DNA of 63,302 nt. Source: Thermoplasmata archaeon. Its GTDB lineage: Archaea; Thermoplasmatota; Thermoplasmata; Thermoplasmatales; Thermoplasmataceae. The position numbers were made by a program, and so were the translations under genes. How positions within the stretch are numbered: the stretch's first letter is position 1; each line of letters begins with the position of its first letter. Where the stretch lies: NCBI GenBank assembly GCA_021806295.1, contig JAJZXS010000005.1, positions 1 through 63,302 on the forward strand. The letters are read 5' to 3'. Positions 41,844 through 49,506 of this stretch are shown piece by piece. Below the pieces are notes generated by a model, which was given only the letters and a program-made list of their open reading frames with translations, searched no databases and was not told where the DNA came from.

Positions 41844-43082
41844 ATGGTGGCTATTACGTTAACCACGAAGCAGCGTTTTATGATTGTATCAAGCGCTTCA
41901 GGGCTAACGTTCTGGGGAATGGTTGGTACACTGGGTCCGCTTGCTGCAGCAGGGTCAATAATAGGGGTGCTCCCCCATTATCTGAAGGTTCTCGTTCTGC
42001 TGATCGGGCCTTTATTTGTCCCATTCGGGAATTTTTTCATGGGATTGCTTACAGACCGGCTTGGAAGAAAAAAGATTTTTCTTATGACCATGATCATTTA
42101 CGGTGTAGGAATAGTTGTGATATCATTGAGCTATACCTTCATTCCACTGATAATAGGCCTGATGCTGGCGGAATTCGGGGTCGGCGGTGAGGAAATACCC
42201 TCCCTGTCGCTTGTATCTGAGGATTCTCCTGTATCCCAGAGGGCAATGTGGCTTACAATCATATCTGATTTTGACAACATAGGCAGTGCCCTTATAGCAG
42301 GATTATTTGTTATAATTGTAAATTCATTCATGGACAGGATAATTCTTCTTTCTGCTGCCTCAGCACTCATTATAATTATGGTACTCTCCAGGATTTCCCT
42401 GCCGGAGTCATACAAATGGCAGGAATCAAGGGGGCAGAAGGAAAAGTCAGAAATTACAAAGAAATCGCTTTACATAGACACCGCCGGTGTAAATATCAAA
42501 AGGCCTGCATACAGGCTATCTCTCTTTGTGCTCATGGCAATGGCAATATCCCAGTATACCACATTCGGACTCATGGCATATGTAATCGGCCCGTACGAAT
42601 TTCCCGGAGCCCGTACAGATGACATGATAATATTTGTTGCCCTTGTGGGCGCCTCAGTGGCTGGCTTCATTGCTGCACCGCTCATATCACGTGGAAGGAA
42701 AAAATATACTATGTATTCCTTCGGAACCGGATTTTTATCCACGGTTCTGATTTTTATCCTTATACCCTTCCTTCATGACACACTGATATTTTATCCGCTG
42801 CTGTTCCTCAACATGATGATGAGTGAATTTGCCTGGGCTTCCAGAACAACACTGGAGCCTGAGCTGGCACCCACAAGGATAAGGGGAACTTTCATTGGCA
42901 CCGTCAGGCTGGCTCCAATGATAGTATATCCGCTGCTTGTCATAGCAACCAGCACCATGCCACTAACAGACTTTATTGCCCTGAACATGGGATTGTGGCT
43001 TCTTGGATTTGCAGGGGCCATGGTATGGCATCATTACGGGATTGAAACAAAAAATGTTAACATAGACTATTCAGAAAATTGA
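41844..43082 (+). CDS. MFS transporter under TPP riboswitch, probable thiamine transporter
   Basis: The 412-residue 12-helix carrier has the MFS loop GLLTDRLGRKKIFLMT and the helix-6 end LPESYKWQESRG. It belongs to the same broad group as the pseudogene at 7416-10687. The function is inferred from the riboswitch: it should be repressed when TPP is plentiful, which suits uptake of thiamine or a precursor. Thermoplasma genomes have similar THI-box carriers described as ThiT1-like. Sequence alone does not prove the cargo. Confidence 0.87.
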   Translation: MVAITLTTKQRFMIVSSASGLTFWGMVGTLGPLAAAGSIIGVLPHYLKVLVLLIGPLFVPFGNFFMGLLTDRLGRKKIFLMTMIIYGVGIVVISLSYTFIPLIIGLMLAEFGVGGEEIPSLSLVSEDSPVSQRAMWLTIISDFDNIGSALIAGLFVIIVNSFMDRIILLSAASALIIIMVLSRISLPESYKWQESRGQKEKSEITKKSLYIDTAGVNIKRPAYRLSLFVLMAMAISQYTTFGLMAYVIGPYEFPGARTDDMIIFVALVGASVAGFIAAPLISRGRKKYTMYSFGTGFLSTVLIFILIPFLHDTLIFYPLLFLNMMMSEFAWASRTTLEPELAPTRIRGTFIGTVRLAPMIVYPLLVIATSTMPLTDFIALNMGLWLLGFAGAMVWHHYGIETKNVNIDYSEN

Positions 43083-43148: not shown

Positions 43149-46100
43149 ATGGATATAAACATAGATGAAAGTATAACAAAATGGGAAAAAGATGTTATAG
43201 ACACTTCAAAAAATAATCGCCTCCTATATTTCAATTCCGACTCATTCCTGAAGATAACCACCCCATCCATGCTGTTCCTCTTCGACGATCTGGTTAACAA
43301 GGATAAAAAAATGGGGGTGCACCTGACCGGGTATGAGGAAAACCGCAGGAAGGATGAAATAATATTTTCAAGGAAAGATGGCCTCGGAAAGGCGCTATCA
43401 TCTATGTACTACCAGGCCAACAGTGCCCTGAAGGAGCACGGATCAAACGTTTTATTCATTTCATTTGGACTGCTGAAATGGAAGGATGAAAATGCCAAAA
43501 CAGTGGAAACACAGCTTTTTTTCGTCCCTGTAACCCTGTCCAGGAAGATGTACGATGATTTTACCCTGGAATCTACAGAGGGGGATATATTTTTCAATCC
43601 TGTGCTAAGGGAAAAGCTGGAACAGTTTGGAATTAAATTTGACTTTACATTTGAGGACAATCTGAATCTATCCGAGGCAATGAGAAATTTCAAGCTAACC
43701 GTAAAGGATACTAAGTGGAGTGTCAGCAGAAATTCCTATCTCGGTGTGGTTTCCTTTACAAACAACAATATATACAACGACATAAAGAAAAACCATGATG
43801 CTATAAAGAAAAATGACCTGACCAGGGCACTGGCGGGAGACTTCGAAGTCATTAAAAAATTGAACGAGAAGATGCCCAGGACCATTGACTATTCAATAGA
43901 TACAGTCATGGATGCCGACTCCAGCCAGATAAGTGCGGTGTATGCCGCAAGGGCAGGTGCAAGCTTTATACTCAATGGCCCCCCGGGAACAGGGAAAAGC
44001 CAGACAATTTCTAACATTATAGCCGATTCAATGAAGAATAACAGGAGCGTTCTTTTTGTCAGTGAAAAAAATGCTGCAATAGAGGTTGTCAAAAAGCGCC
44101 TCCAGGAGTCCGGGCTGGGAGATTTTATCCTGAGCTTCCATGGAAATGCATCAAAGAGTGAAATCATTAAATCCCTGTATAAATCAGTGGAGAACAACCA
44201 GCATGTTTCCAGAACCCTTGTACCCACGGACAGGTACTCAGGGACCCTGAACGATTATGTACATGCTGTCCATGAAAAACGTGGAAATCTTGGAAGGAGC
44301 GTGTACAATGCATGTATGGTTGAACTTGAAAACAGCTGCCAGTTTTCTCTCAAAATTGGTGCGGGCATGATCGACATTACCCCGGAAGTACTGGAAAACA
44401 TAGAGTTCCAGATTTCAGAGTTCAACGATTACCTCGATATCATTGAAAATTTCGATAAAATGCCGGTTGATTTGCAGCTGCCCCGGTACAGGGAGAATCC
44501 TGAAAAATACTACCGTGGAATAGACTCCATAGAAAACGGCATAGATGGCATGGAGGAAATAGGGGATCAGATAAAAAATTGTACCGGCGTGGATGTTGCA
44601 TCAATGAAAGATGCAGAGAAGGTTTACAGGCTGGGGTCGGTGCTCAATCCTGAGATAACCCTGGAGAAAGAGTTCCTGGATGCGGAGTTTATCCAGGATG
44701 CCTATGAACTGCTGGAGTCCCGTGAAAAACTGATTCAGGAATACAGGTATATGTCAGATATTTTCATGAAAAAGAGGAAAAAAGAGTTCTTGAACCTGGA
44801 CCTTGATGCCCTGAAAAAGAACCTTGTTGAAAACTACAGCTCTGGCCTCAAAAGGCTTTCCTCGGATTATAAAAAGATAGTAAAGGACGTGATGGACCTA
44901 ACTGAGGACGAATCGAGGAAGCATTATAATGAAATTATAGAAGACATAGATTATGCCATGAAGATAAGGGAGAAAGAAGCAGCCCTTGAAGCAGTGGAGG
45001 AATCCATGAAATCAAGGAATATCGACTCTGAGGATGTTTATGATAAGATCAGATATGCAAAAAAGATAATCTCAAATATGCCCGGGGAAACTTCAGTCGG
45101 GGCAGTAACTGAAATGGTATCAGGAATGGAAAATATGGATAGCATAATGGAATTCAAATCACTCTATGAATCTGTGATTGATGGAATAAATTCTCTTTCT
45201 GAGGTTCTGCCATCTGCCGGCAGCATGGCGGATAAAAAACTAGAGGAAATCAGGGAACAGATAGTAGGGCTCTCATCCCTGGATGTGGAACGCTATGCCA
45301 AATTCATGGAGCTCTATGATTCACTGAAATCTTCCGGCATAGACATATCCCCCGCCTTCAATATGGACCTGCATACAGACTCCATACTTCAATCATTCAG
45401 GCACAGCTTCAACCATGAATTCGTTTCATATTATGTAAGAAACGATGATAATCTGAAGAATTTCAGAGCCTCCTCCCACGAGAGGCTGGCAGGCATGTTC
45501 ATTGATTATGACAGAAAAAGAATAGAAATAAACCGGATCAACCTGGTAAGCGAATTAACAGACAGGCGCAGGGAGATACTGGCAAAGTATCCCGGTGCGT
45601 CCATGATAATCAAAACCGAAAATGCAAAGAAAAGATTCCAGAAGCCATTAAAGACGCTGTTCGGTGAGCTCAGGGAGGTGCTTCCAGCACTGAAGCCCTG
45701 TATAATGATGAGCCCGAATAATGTAAGTGCTTTCCTTGACAGCGATTTTTCCTTTGACCTGATTATATTTGATGAGGCATCACAGCTGACGCCTCCTGAT
45801 GCGGTAGGATCCCTTATAAGGTCAAAGCAGGCGATTATATCCGGGGATACGCAGCAGCTTCCACCCACCAGTTTCTTTGAAAATGTAAATATATCAAAGT
45901 ATGAGGATGATTATGTTGTGCTGGACAACATACTGGACCAGTTTGATGCCATAGGGCTCGCAAAGATACCGCTGAAATGGCATTACAGGAGTGTTGATGA
46001 CAGGCTGATCGCATTTTCCAACAGGTATTTCTACGAAAATTCCCTGGAAACGTTCCCTTCTGCCTATGTAAACTCTCCGGATACAGGCCTTGAATTTTTC

Positions 46101-46967
46101 AAAATCGAGGGCACCTACAGCAGGGGAAAGAGCAGAACCAACAGGGCAGAGGCAAATGAGGTAGTAAGGATAATAAAGGAAGAACTGCTTCAAACAAATT
46201 CCATAGGGGTGGTAACCCTGAGCGAGGCCCAGAGGTCCGCCATAGAAGAAACCCTCAGTTCCTATTCCAGGCACGATAGCGTTCTTGCAGAGCTAATAAA
46301 CAATGACGGCATATTTGTAAAAAACCTGGAAAACGTGCAGGGAGATGAAAAAGACGTAATAATTTTGAGTACAGGATACGGAAAGGATGATAGTGGCAGG
46401 CTGACAATGAATTTTGGCCCTATAAACAGCACTGGAGGGGAGAAGAGGCTGAATGTGGCCATAACCCGTGCCAGGAAAAAATTCATCGTTGTTTCATCCA
46501 TGGACCCTGAGGATATAAGGGTCCCGGAAACGGCCGGCAGGGGGCCTGAACTTCTAAAGCAATATTTGATTTATGCCAAAAACCATGGATCAGGATCCAT
46601 TATACAGAAATTCAGAAATGATGATGCAATAATAAATGATGTTGCTGCCAAGCTTGAGGCCGAGGGTTTTACTACAGTGAAAAACGTGGGATATTCCATG
46701 AACAATATAGCCCTGGCAGTGATTGATCCGGATGATGATAACCACTATATCCTCGGGATTGAAACAGATGGCAGGATTTATAATAGCATGAAGACCGCAT
46801 CGGAACGTGAAAGGATAAGGAAGGCGATACTGTCCGCCAGGGGATGGAACCTTTATAGGATATGGTCCGTGGACTATATGAAGAATCCTGAAAAGGTGCT
46901 TCACGAAATTATCAATAATATCAACAGGTACAAAACAGAAGTCAAAAGCGCTGGGAGGGAGATTTGA
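43149..46967 (+). CDS. DUF4011 / SF1 helicase / Vsr-like nuclease fusion
   Basis: This 1272-residue protein has three parts. Residues 1-240 match the DUF4011 start (WEKDVIDTSKNNRLLYF). Residues 265-1110 are an SF1 helicase with Walker A GPPGTGKSQ at 277-285, a long helical insertion, FDEASQ near 875, GDTQQLPPTSF and the end motif AITRARKKF. Residues 1150-1262 look like a Vsr/MTES-1575 endonuclease: GIETDGRIYN, RERIRKAIL, then GWNLYRIWSVDY. This domain order matches bacterial single-gene antiphage proteins (Gao et al. Hhe type), so a defence role is likely but untested here. The last 19 bases overlap the tRNA-Ser gene on the other strand. Confidence 0.85.
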   Translation: MDINIDESITKWEKDVIDTSKNNRLLYFNSDSFLKITTPSMLFLFDDLVNKDKKMGVHLTGYEENRRKDEIIFSRKDGLGKALSSMYYQANSALKEHGSNVLFISFGLLKWKDENAKTVETQLFFVPVTLSRKMYDDFTLESTEGDIFFNPVLREKLEQFGIKFDFTFEDNLNLSEAMRNFKLTVKDTKWSVSRNSYLGVVSFTNNNIYNDIKKNHDAIKKNDLTRALAGDFEVIKKLNEKMPRTIDYSIDTVMDADSSQISAVYAARAGASFILNGPPGTGKSQTISNIIADSMKNNRSVLFVSEKNAAIEVVKKRLQESGLGDFILSFHGNASKSEIIKSLYKSVENNQHVSRTLVPTDRYSGTLNDYVHAVHEKRGNLGRSVYNACMVELENSCQFSLKIGAGMIDITPEVLENIEFQISEFNDYLDIIENFDKMPVDLQLPRYRENPEKYYRGIDSIENGIDGMEEIGDQIKNCTGVDVASMKDAEKVYRLGSVLNPEITLEKEFLDAEFIQDAYELLESREKLIQEYRYMSDIFMKKRKKEFLNLDLDALKKNLVENYSSGLKRLSSDYKKIVKDVMDLTEDESRKHYNEIIEDIDYAMKIREKEAALEAVEESMKSRNIDSEDVYDKIRYAKKIISNMPGETSVGAVTEMVSGMENMDSIMEFKSLYESVIDGINSLSEVLPSAGSMADKKLEEIREQIVGLSSLDVERYAKFMELYDSLKSSGIDISPAFNMDLHTDSILQSFRHSFNHEFVSYYVRNDDNLKNFRASSHERLAGMFIDYDRKRIEINRINLVSELTDRRREILAKYPGASMIIKTENAKKRFQKPLKTLFGELREVLPALKPCIMMSPNNVSAFLDSDFSFDLIIFDEASQLTPPDAVGSLIRSKQAIISGDTQQLPPTSFFENVNISKYEDDYVVLDNILDQFDAIGLAKIPLKWHYRSVDDRLIAFSNRYFYENSLETFPSAYVNSPDTGLEFFKIEGTYSRGKSRTNRAEANEVVRIIKEELLQTNSIGVVTLSEAQRSAIEETLSSYSRHDSVLAELINNDGIFVKNLENVQGDEKDVIILSTGYGKDDSGRLTMNFGPINSTGGEKRLNVAITRARKKFIVVSSMDPEDIRVPETAGRGPELLKQYLIYAKNHGSGSIIQKFRNDDAIINDVAAKLEAEGFTTVKNVGYSMNNIALAVIDPDDDNHYILGIETDGRIYNSMKTASERERIRKAILSARGWNLYRIWSVDYMKNPEKVLHEIINNINRYKTEVKSAGREI

Positions 46968-47032
46968 ACTCCCGGGCACTTACGTGCACAGGTTTTCCAG
47001 ACCTGCGTCTTACCAGGCTAGGCTATCCCAGC
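46949..47032 (-). tRNA. tRNA-Ser (anticodon GGA)
   Basis: The minus strand folds into a class II tRNA of 84 bases: acceptor GCTGGGA pairs with TCCCAGC, discriminator G, anticodon stem CAGGT/ACCTG with loop CTGGAAA, anticodon GGA, and a long variable arm (TGCACGTAAGTGC) typical of serine. The T-loop reads TTCAAAT. CCA is not encoded. Its 3' end overlaps the last codons of the helicase gene on the opposite strand. Confidence 0.95.
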
Positions 47033-47054: not shown

Positions 47055-47498
47055 TTATAATATCCTTTCGAATAATGGGATTGTAACGCTTTTTTCAATT
47101 CCATCCATTGTCCTGAGTTTTTCAAGCACAAAGGTGGAAAGGTCCTTCATGGATTTCTGGGCCGTTAAGAGCATAATATCCCAGTCTCCTGTAACGATTG
47201 AGGCCGAAATTACATTATCCATCTTTGAAAGGTTGACGCATAATGACCTCTGGTCTATGGAAGATTTTGGATTATACTGTATCATGATATATGCAAGAAC
47301 GGAGTATCCCAGCTTCTCATAGTTCAGATCTACTGTATATTTTTTTATGAACCCGTCCTTCCTGAGCCTCTCCATTCTTTCGAATATTGTTGCCCTGGGA
47401 ATCTCCAGAGAATTGGAAATGTCTGATATTTTATCCCTTCCGTGCTCTTTCAGGTACTCTATTATTTTCATATCCTTTTTATCAATATTATCAAGCAT
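47055..47498 (-). CDS. Lrp/AsnC-family transcription regulator
   Basis: From the ATG at 47498 (MLDNIDKKDMKIIEYLK) the protein is 147 residues with the AsnC winged helix (ISDISNSLEIPRATIFERMERL) followed by a RAM ligand-binding domain ending in ERIL. The longer frame from 47531 adds 11 unlikely residues. It is divergent from the asparagine synthetase gene; bacterial AsnC controls asnA, so the pair may be regulator and target, with asparagine as possible ligand. This is inference from arrangement. Confidence 0.9.
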   Translation of the reverse strand: MLDNIDKKDMKIIEYLKEHGRDKISDISNSLEIPRATIFERMERLRKDGFIKKYTVDLNYEKLGYSVLAYIMIQYNPKSSIDQRSLCVNLSKMDNVISASIVTGDWDIMLLTAQKSMKDLSTFVLEKLRTMDGIEKSVTIPLFERIL

Positions 47499-47591
47499 AA
47501 AAGCAAAATGACATTGATGTATATAAAACATTTGTTTTTAACACGGAAAATCAAATAAAATGTTTATAAATTGTGATTTAATAGATACATT

Positions 47592-48551
47592 ATGGAAACA
47601 TTGAATCAGAATGATGATTATGTGAAAGGTGAGATAGAAAGATCAATGAGGCACCTTGCCGACCCGAAAGTTCAGCATGCCATAAAGGTACAGAGCTATA
47701 TTCGGTCATATGTGACAGATTTCCTGCGGGAGGCAGGTTACACGGAAATTGCACCTATTATAATTTCACCCCTCACAGACCCGTTGAACCATCCGGTTTA
47801 TGATCCGAAGATACATGCCTATGGAGGCGATATGTGGATTACCCAGAGCATGATTTTCCACAAGCAGATAGCCGTGCAGGAACTCAAGAAAATCTTTATA
47901 ATGTCCCCAAACGTAAGGCTTGAAACCGAGGAAAAGGCTGAAACCGGGAGGCATCTTTATGAATTTACCCAGATTGACATCGAGGCACTGGAAAAGTCCA
48001 GGGAAGAGATGATGTCCCTTGCAGAGGATATGATCATATACACAATATCAAGAATAAAGAAGGAACATTCTGAGGAGTTAAAGTATTTCCACAGGACGCT
48101 GCCTGACTACCACAAGCCATTCCCGGTGATTACCTTCAGGGAGGCGGAGGAAAAGTACGGCAAAGGCTTCGAAACAGGATTATCAAAAGACTCCAAGTCC
48201 CCTGTATGGGTAATAGACATACCCTTAAAGGAAAGGGAATTTTATGACAGGGAATACCCGGACAGGCCCGGAATACTGAGGGATATGGACCTTATCTGGC
48301 CAGAAGGGTTTGAGGAGGCATCATCCGGTGGAGAAAGGGAATATGAGCTTTCACAGATCCTTGACAGAATCCATAAGAAAGGCCAGACAGAGGAACAGTT
48401 TAAATGGTTCATTGAACTGGCCCGTGAGGGAATTAAGCTCACAACCGGATTCGGTATAGGCATAGAGAGGTTCACCAGGTTTGTATGTGGCGTGGCAAAA
48501 ATTGAGGACGTCACAACATTTCCTAAAGTACCTGGAAGAATATCCCTTTAA
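47592..48551 (+). CDS. Archaeal asparagine synthetase related to Asp/AsnRS (class II fold)
   Basis: The 319-residue protein is a class II aminoacyl-tRNA synthetase catalytic core without an anticodon-binding domain. Motif 2 is in RLETEEKAETGRHLYEFTQ and motif 3 is GFGIGIERFTRF. This length and the missing N-terminal OB domain match the archaeal asparagine synthetase related to AsnRS (described from Pyrococcus), which makes asparagine from aspartate and ammonia with ATP. A tRNA-charging role is unlikely without the anticodon domain. It faces a Lrp/AsnC regulator across a 93-base promoter region. Confidence 0.85.
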   Translation: METLNQNDDYVKGEIERSMRHLADPKVQHAIKVQSYIRSYVTDFLREAGYTEIAPIIISPLTDPLNHPVYDPKIHAYGGDMWITQSMIFHKQIAVQELKKIFIMSPNVRLETEEKAETGRHLYEFTQIDIEALEKSREEMMSLAEDMIIYTISRIKKEHSEELKYFHRTLPDYHKPFPVITFREAEEKYGKGFETGLSKDSKSPVWVIDIPLKEREFYDREYPDRPGILRDMDLIWPEGFEEASSGGEREYELSQILDRIHKKGQTEEQFKWFIELAREGIKLTTGFGIGIERFTRFVCGVAKIEDVTTFPKVPGRISL

Positions 48552-49422: not shown

Positions 49423-49506
49423 CGCTGGGAGGGAGATTTGAACTCCCGAGCTATTTCTAGCAGTAGATTTCGAATCTACCGTCTTACCGGGCTAGGCTAC
49501 CCCAGC
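49423..49506 (-). tRNA. tRNA-Ser (anticodon CGA)
   Basis: The minus-strand class II tRNA has acceptor GCTGGGG pairing with TCCCAGC (one G-T), discriminator G, anticodon stem GTAGA/TCTAC with loop TTCGAAA, anticodon CGA, and a long variable arm (GCTAGAAATAGC). The 3' portion is identical over about 27 bases with tRNA-Ser(GGA) at 46949. CCA is not encoded. Confidence 0.95.

What the first reader, a model, noticed from the sequence alone, without database searches (positions are those of the whole stretch)
43149..46967. DUF4011-helicase-Vsr-like nuclease: likely archaeal single-gene antiviral protein
The domain order and the GIETDGRIYN/GWNLYRIWS nuclease-like end match bacterial defence proteins of the Hhe type. 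Finding a full-length copy in an acidophilic archaeon beside a tRNA gene suggests horizontally moved defence.
Basis: partly seen in the sequence, partly recalled or inferred. Interest (0 to 1): 0.72.

Follow-up and report, generated by a model that had tools for sequence, protein, structure and literature searches.

The report
Core archaeal helicase with dead nuclease
A large helicase of a type known from bacterial virus defence is kept by every adequately sequenced member of Ferroplasma and its two sister genera at ordinary, non-mobile places in the chromosome, but its DNA-cutting part has lost its invariant catalytic residue, so it probably now works as a non-cutting helicase rather than as a recently imported virus-killing enzyme.

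Summary
In detail: window 43149-46967(+) is one intact 1272-aa gene with DUF4011, a UPF1-like SF1 helicase and an MTES_1575 (Vsr-like) nuclease fold, ending 20 nt inside a tRNA-Ser gene. The interpretation mostly fails. (1) The catalytic aspartate of the nuclease ('IDLAV') is Asp in 47 of 48 relatives from the same class or plasmids and in all 73 readable relatives elsewhere. It is Ala or Pro in all 13 sequences of this lineage; the helix-A glutamate is also gone. All ATPase motifs are intact. (2) The gene is not recently mobile. It is in 8 of 9 other genomes of the genus (the exception is 80% complete and lacks flanking markers too) and in every genome of two sister genera. These form one clade with the same branching in the gene tree. 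(3) Purifying selection is strong (dN/dS 0.04-0.085), also on the dead domain. The genus is Ferroplasma: one genome's length equals the published F. acidiphilum genome. I read it as a domesticated, nuclease-dead offshoot of the DUF4011-helicase-Vsr defence family, a nucleic-acid motor with a pseudonuclease binding module. Whether its job is genome maintenance or nuclease-independent defence is open.

The parts
43149..46967 (+). DUF4011 - UPF1-like SF1 helicase - pseudo-Vsr nuclease protein, 1272 aa
43197..43619 (+). DUF4011 domain (aa 17-157); AlphaFold model of aa 1-252 confident (pLDDT 91.5) but without a clear PDB fold match; a Pro found in all outgroup sequences compared is Gln122 here
43977..44000 (+). 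Walker A GPPGTGKS (aa 277-284), intact
44184..45593 (+). Large insert between Walker A and Walker B (aa 346-815); fastest evolving part (dN/dS 0.08-0.16)
45771..45782 (+). Walker B DEAS (aa 875-878), intact
45963..46502 (+). AAA_12 / second RecA half (aa 939-1118) with motifs IV-VI intact; UPF1/IGHMBP2/Sen1/Dna2-like fold
46611..46922 (+). MTES_1575 Vsr-like nuclease fold, catalytically degenerate (aa 1155-1258)
46632..46634 (+). Ile1162 in place of the helix-A glutamate (SPFEE motif of active relatives)
46710..46712 (+). Ala1188 (GCC) in place of the otherwise invariant catalytic aspartate (IDLAV motif)
46761..46769 (+). Retained E1205-T-D1207, the second acidic motif (IE-C-D in relatives)
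46948..47032 (-). tRNA-Ser(GGA); its 3' end encodes, on the other strand, the last six residues SAGREI and the stop of the protein
41844..43082 (+). MFS transporter, conserved upstream neighbour in the genus and in two sister-genus genomes
47055..47531 (-). Lrp/AsnC regulator, conserved neighbour after the tRNA
47592..48551 (+). Class II aminoacyl-tRNA-synthetase-like protein (319 aa, tRNA-synt_2), conserved neighbour

Best explanation
A vertically inherited, clade-core member of the DUF4011-helicase-Vsr family whose nuclease has been inactivated while the helicase stayed intact. Most likely mechanism: an ATP-driven UPF1-like SF1 translocase/helicase moves on DNA (or RNA). The DUF4011 domain and the long insert set substrate or partner choice, and the pseudonuclease holds or guides the nucleic acid without cutting it, as the inactivated nuclease domain of RecC does. 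I think it has been domesticated for chromosome or nucleic-acid maintenance in Ferroplasma and its sister genera. SHOWN: intact ATPase motifs, loss of the catalytic Asp and helix-A Glu in the whole clade, vertical inheritance, purifying selection, predicted fold of the C-terminal half. INFERRED: no cleavage activity, a binding role for the pseudonuclease, 5'-3' polarity, a maintenance role.
For: Catalytic Asp column: D in 47/48 class or plasmid relatives and 73/73 readable relatives elsewhere; A or P in 13/13 of this clade. An independent profile built only from outgroup nuclease domains places Ala on the Asp match state, posterior marked *. Walker A K, Walker B DE, motif III Q, IV R, V Q/E and VI R all intact. 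Predicted C-terminal half is UPF1-like (Foldseek prob 1.00, E 1.6e-13); the nuclease part has the alpha-beta-beta-beta-alpha-beta order with Ala1188 at the start of strand 2, Glu1205 on strand 3 and Ile1162 in helix A. Present in own genome, 8/9 other genus genomes, 3/3 g18, 2/2 g19, no ortholog in other genera of the family. g1+g18+g19 form one SRP54 clade (support 1.0), branching as in the gene tree. Same neighbours in the genus. dN/dS whole gene 0.043, 0.085 and 0.072 in three pairs; pseudonuclease 0.021, 0.133 (8 changes only) and 0.059. No DUF3320 (wHTH) or HEPN hit and no second copy in the genome (relatives for comparison). Precedent for an inactivated nuclease domain with a new DNA-guiding role: RecC (PMC1185551).
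Against: No biochemistry or knockout. E1205, D1207 and the R-E-R helix remain, so weak or unusual metal binding is not excluded. The gene is confined to three genera and its middle diverges fast (38% identity between g1 species), more like a conflict gene than a classical housekeeping gene; it evolves faster than neighbouring Lrp and the synthetase-like gene. A core, vertically kept gene can still be a defence gene. The conservation of the pseudonuclease could be partly structural.
Confidence: 0.55

Rival explanations
1. Nuclease-dead but still antiviral: the protein senses or strips invading nucleic acid by its helicase, or recruits a separate nuclease, and is kept as a core immune gene.
For: All its nearest annotated profiles are defence or candidate-defence models. 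The fast-diverging middle insert (dN/dS 0.08-0.16, 38% identity between species) would fit an arms race. Ferroplasma carries CRISPR-Cas and hence meets mobile elements (PMC5473848).
Against: No defence genes, integrase or transposase beside it; no gain and loss within the clade; lacks the accessory modules (DUF3320, HEPN) described for some relatives (PMC3710099). Fast divergence of an insert can also be neutral.
Confidence: 0.3
2. An ordinary, active single-protein antiviral helicase-nuclease of the Hhe / PDC-S37 kind, cutting with a rearranged active site.
For: Same domain order; MTES_1575 domain well above its Pfam cut-off; E1205, D1207 and the arginine helix kept.
Against: Asp1188, invariant elsewhere but for one protein, is Ala or Pro in all 13 sequences and varies freely between the two; helix-A Glu lost; Arg1218 (92% outside) also lost. 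No replacement acidic residue is common to the clade in that strand.
Confidence: 0.1
3. A recently acquired defence cargo inserted at the tRNA-Ser gene.
For: The gene overlaps a tRNA 3' end, a common integration site; the family occurs on plasmids.
Against: Same place across the genus with matching gene and species trees; the only other copy of the 22-nt tRNA 3' end in the window is the second tRNA-Ser gene at 49424; no integrase among neighbouring proteins; GC like the surroundings.
Confidence: 0.03
4. A decaying pseudogene-like remnant of a defence gene.
For: Nuclease site lost.
Against: Intact frame in every complete copy, dN/dS far below 1 in all domains.
Confidence: 0.02

Closest known systems
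PADLOC PDC-S37 (candidate single-gene defence system)
   Same: Full-length match, 938 bits over aa 1-1267; same domain order.
   Different: A candidate only; the catalytic Asp is intact in nearly all family members compared here and lost in this clade.
Hhe (NCBIfam NF042953, DUF4011 anti-phage protein)
   Same: DUF4011, SF1 helicase and Vsr-like nuclease.
   Different: 623 bits against a cut-off of 2000; the Hhe copy examined is 1893 aa and lies on a plasmid beside insertion sequences; different branch of the tree; it keeps E and D of the site.
ProA (NCBIfam NF058533, anti-phage protein)
   Same: 925 bits over aa 74-1267.
   Different: Below its cut-off of 1500; the model is about 1900 positions long and the match starts at its position 451.
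[quoted passage not shown] PMC3710099)
   Same: Helicase and Vsr-type REase fold.
   Different: No HEPN, transglutaminase or wHTH (DUF3320) hit in the window protein; inactive nuclease site.
Core DUF4011 gene of Pseudomonas aeruginosa (right flank of cDHS1, in every isolate; PMC10250203)
   Same: A DUF4011 gene kept as a core chromosomal gene.
   Different: Its nuclease site was not examined here; it borders a defence hotspot, which this gene does not.
RecC of RecBCD (PMC1185551)
   Same: PD-(D/E)xK nuclease fold that lost its catalytic site beside helicase modules and took on DNA guiding.
   Different: Not the same system; RecC's helicase domains are also dead and it works in a trimer.
UPF1 / IGHMBP2 / Sen1 / Dna2 SF1 helicases
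   Same: Helicase core fold and motifs.
   Different: Different accessory domains.

Membership tests
DUF4011-helicase-Vsr superfamily (PDC-S37 like) | DUF4011, SF1 helicase and MTES_1575 domains in this order, full length | tested here: met
Hhe anti-phage protein | Reaches NCBIfam NF042953 cut-off (2000 bits) | tested here: not met
   623 bits
Hhe anti-phage protein | Intact Vsr-like nuclease site | tested here: not met
Hhe anti-phage protein | Protects cells from phage | not testable with these tools
   needs a plaque assay
ProA anti-phage protein | Reaches NCBIfam NF058533 cut-off (1500 bits) | tested here: not met
   925 bits
MTES_1575 REase (PF18741) | Profile above gathering score | tested here: met
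   80.6 vs 38.2; secondary-structure order of the model fits
MTES_1575 REase (PF18741) | Catalytic Asp of PD-(D/E)xK site | tested here: not met
   Ala/Pro in 13/13
UPF1-like SF1 helicase | ATPase/helicase motifs and fold | tested here: met
UPF1-like SF1 helicase | 5'-3' unwinding | not testable with these tools
   inferred from family only
Horizontally mobile defence island | Patchy presence, variable locus, mobile-element genes or attachment repeats | tested here: not met
Clade-core vertical gene | Present in all well-sampled members, gene tree equals species tree, fixed locus | tested here: met
   locus fixed in the genus, moved in some g18 and in g19

The most novel reading that the evidence does not exclude
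An antiviral helicase-nuclease was tamed once in the common ancestor of Ferroplasma and its two sister genera: nuclease switched off, accessory sensor and killer modules absent, helicase retained and made a permanent part of the chromosome with a new genome- or RNA-maintenance role.
Probability: 0.45. Interest if true: 0.65.

Novelty: new variant of a known kind. Interest (0 to 1): 0.5.

Why it matters
Profile-based defence catalogues would count this gene as a defence system by its 938-bit PDC-S37 match, yet its nuclease is almost certainly dead and its inheritance is that of a core gene. It is a clear case where the family label and the likely function part ways, and a testable example of a conflict gene becoming a resident gene in archaea. 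A second, separately rooted DUF4011 lineage is near-universal in another family of the same class, and a DUF4011 gene is core in P. aeruginosa, so such taming may be common for this family and can be tested by knockout in F. acidiphilum.

Tried and rejected
The literature library has no text on PDC-S37 and only three papers naming DUF4011, one of them relevant. The helicase-nuclease gene matched by an F. acidiphilum CRISPR spacer (PMC5473848) was considered as this gene and rejected: the near-identical copy of this gene from G009 finds only its ortholog in the F. acidiphilum-size genome G004. Attachment-site search around the tRNA: no upstream copy. DUF4011 fold searches gave no clear match (Foldseek best prob about 0.15; VIA-align best Z 3.0), so no function is inferred for that domain; this does not show that the fold is new. 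The C-terminal structure list is filled by the helicase part, so similarity of the nuclease part to Vsr in the PDB was not tested by fold, only by Pfam profile. The missing copy in genus genome G001 was checked: that genome (80% complete) also lacks SRP54, the tRNA match and the MFS neighbour, so absence says nothing. Near-identity of the gene in G004 and G009 was checked as possible recent transfer: the whole 20-kb stretch is 98-100% identical apart from its end, so it is not special. The sister group of the clade is unresolved (SH-aLRT 93 to a single planctomycete).

Full report
WHAT IS THERE. The reading frame 43149-46967(+) is intact and encodes 1272 aa. Pfam finds DUF4011 at aa 17-157, AAA_11 and AAA_12 helicase halves, and MTES_1575 (Vsr-like nuclease) at aa 1164-1258, all above curated cut-offs. 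The best whole-protein profiles are PADLOC PDC-S37 (938 bits), NCBIfam ProA (925, cut-off 1500) and NCBIfam Hhe (623, cut-off 2000). The gene ends inside tRNA-Ser(GGA): the last six codons (SAGREI) and the stop are the complement of the tRNA 3' end.

THE HELICASE IS INTACT. Walker A (GPPGTGKS), Walker B (DEAS), the Gln of motif III, Arg of IV, Gln/Glu of V and Arg of VI are all kept in the clade. By sequence the nearest solved structures are UPF1, IGHMBP2, Sen1 and Dna2. A predicted model of aa 830-1272 (pLDDT 87.7) matches UPF1 with probability 1.00 and Z about 15-16. The model of aa 1-252 is confident (pLDDT 91.5) but has no clear match.

THE NUCLEASE IS DEGENERATE. I aligned 13 copies from the window's lineage with 48 proteins from the same class or from plasmids and 78 from other bacteria and archaea (closer view). 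At the catalytic aspartate of the 'IDLAV' strand, 47/48 and 73/73 readable relatives have D; the lineage has A (6) or P (7). (Of the 78, four had a gap there and one was masked.) At the helix-A glutamate most relatives have E (30 of 48; 47 of 78) and the lineage has I (12) or T (1), but this position also varies elsewhere. E1205 and D1207 are kept. A profile built only from 40 outgroup nuclease domains places the lineage's Ala/Pro on the Asp state with posterior marked *. In the model, Ala1188 opens strand 2, Glu1205 sits on strand 3 and Ile1162 is in the first helix, the usual places of the PD-(D/E)xK site. Catalysis is therefore very unlikely; this is inference from the site, not an assay. 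The 13 sequences share one ancestry, so this is one inherited event, not 13. A single similar loss (Gly) was seen in one distant protein (L105).

IT IS A CORE, VERTICALLY INHERITED GENE OF ONE CLADE. In 100 relatives, orthologs occur in 8 of 9 other genomes of the genus, in all three g18 genomes and both g19 genomes, and in no other genus of the family apart from generic helicase hits (the class-wide sample agrees). The genus genome without it is 80% complete and also lacks SRP54, the tRNA match and the MFS neighbour. In the genus the order MFS - this gene - tRNA-Ser(GGA) - Lrp - class II synthetase-like gene is fixed; one g18 genome keeps the tRNA side, two g18 genomes keep the MFS side, and g19 has the gene elsewhere. 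The tRNA-Lrp-synthetase block exists without the gene in g17 and g19, so the gene was placed beside it. An SRP54 tree groups g1+g18+g19 with support 1.0, g19 deepest; the gene tree has the same order. One genus genome has a contig of 1,826,943 bases, the published size of the F. acidiphilum Y genome (PMC5473848), so the genus is Ferroplasma (inference from the size match).

SELECTION. dN/dS is 0.043 (window vs G006), 0.085 (G002/G007) and 0.072 (G054/G026) for the gene; 0.021, 0.133 and 0.059 for the pseudonuclease (the 0.133 rests on 8 changes); 0.012-0.033 for the helicase core; 0.08-0.16 for the insert at aa 346-815. The dead domain is thus still under constraint. It also has residues invariant in the clade and rare outside it (N1157, D1159, I1162, F1174, K1178, N1186, T1206, M1214), and columns invariant in the compared outgroups are changed (Pro to Gln122, Ser to Asn927), as expected if the protein shifted function.

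SURROUNDINGS. Neighbours are transporters, cobalamin genes (CbiG, CobB), an Lrp regulator and a synthetase-like gene; no specific defence-system hit among ten neighbours (the Lrp and permease hits are generic) and no integrase or transposase. The 22-nt tRNA 3' end recurs only in the second tRNA-Ser of the window. Recent insertion at the tRNA is not supported.

MECHANISM. Shown: intact motor, inactive-looking nuclease, constraint, vertical descent. Inferred: the motor works on nucleic acid without cutting; the pseudonuclease binds or guides the strand, for which RecC is a precedent (PMC1185551). Some relatives in the literature carry HEPN, transglutaminase and wHTH modules (PMC3710099), and DUF3320 is detected in two of six relatives scanned; none is detected in the window protein. 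I favour a maintenance role (about 0.55) over nuclease-independent defence (about 0.3). The data do not separate these strongly: being core and vertical argues for maintenance, the fast insert and the family's history argue for defence.

NOVELTY. The family is known; what is new here is a clade-wide, catalytically dead, vertically fixed version. Filing it as 'Hhe' would be wrong on two tested features. 'Works like a helicase of this family' remains sound.

Noticed in passing
loci L094-L102, L106-L108, L113 (class relatives, family f11): A separate lineage of ~1250-aa DUF4011-helicase-Vsr proteins is near-universal in family f11 of the same class (34 of 40 high-quality genomes). It keeps the catalytic Asp but has mostly lost the helix-A Glu and mostly reads IECDS for IECDG: a second core lineage of the family.
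   Followed up: partly
L105 (G248, f15): An independent loss of the same catalytic Asp (to Gly) in a distant DUF4011 protein.
   Followed up: no
G393:C14:11154-19833, G259:C24:96369-105258, G265:C5:86238-95106: Two DUF4011-helicase genes stand close together in several f32 genomes.
   Followed up: no
window 46948-46967: The C-terminal SAGREI of the protein is encoded by the complement of the tRNA-Ser 3' end; in G026 and G054, where the gene is away from the tRNA, the tail differs.
   Followed up: partly
window 47592-48551: A 319-aa class II synthetase-like protein (tRNA-synt_2 only), short for a full AsnRS, beside an Lrp regulator; may be an archaeal asparagine synthetase related to AsnRS (own knowledge, not tested).
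   Followed up: no
loci L033 and L034: The 20-kb stretch around the gene is 98-100% identical between two genomes held as different species, except at its end (91.7% in the last 568 bases), suggesting block exchange between them.
   Followed up: no
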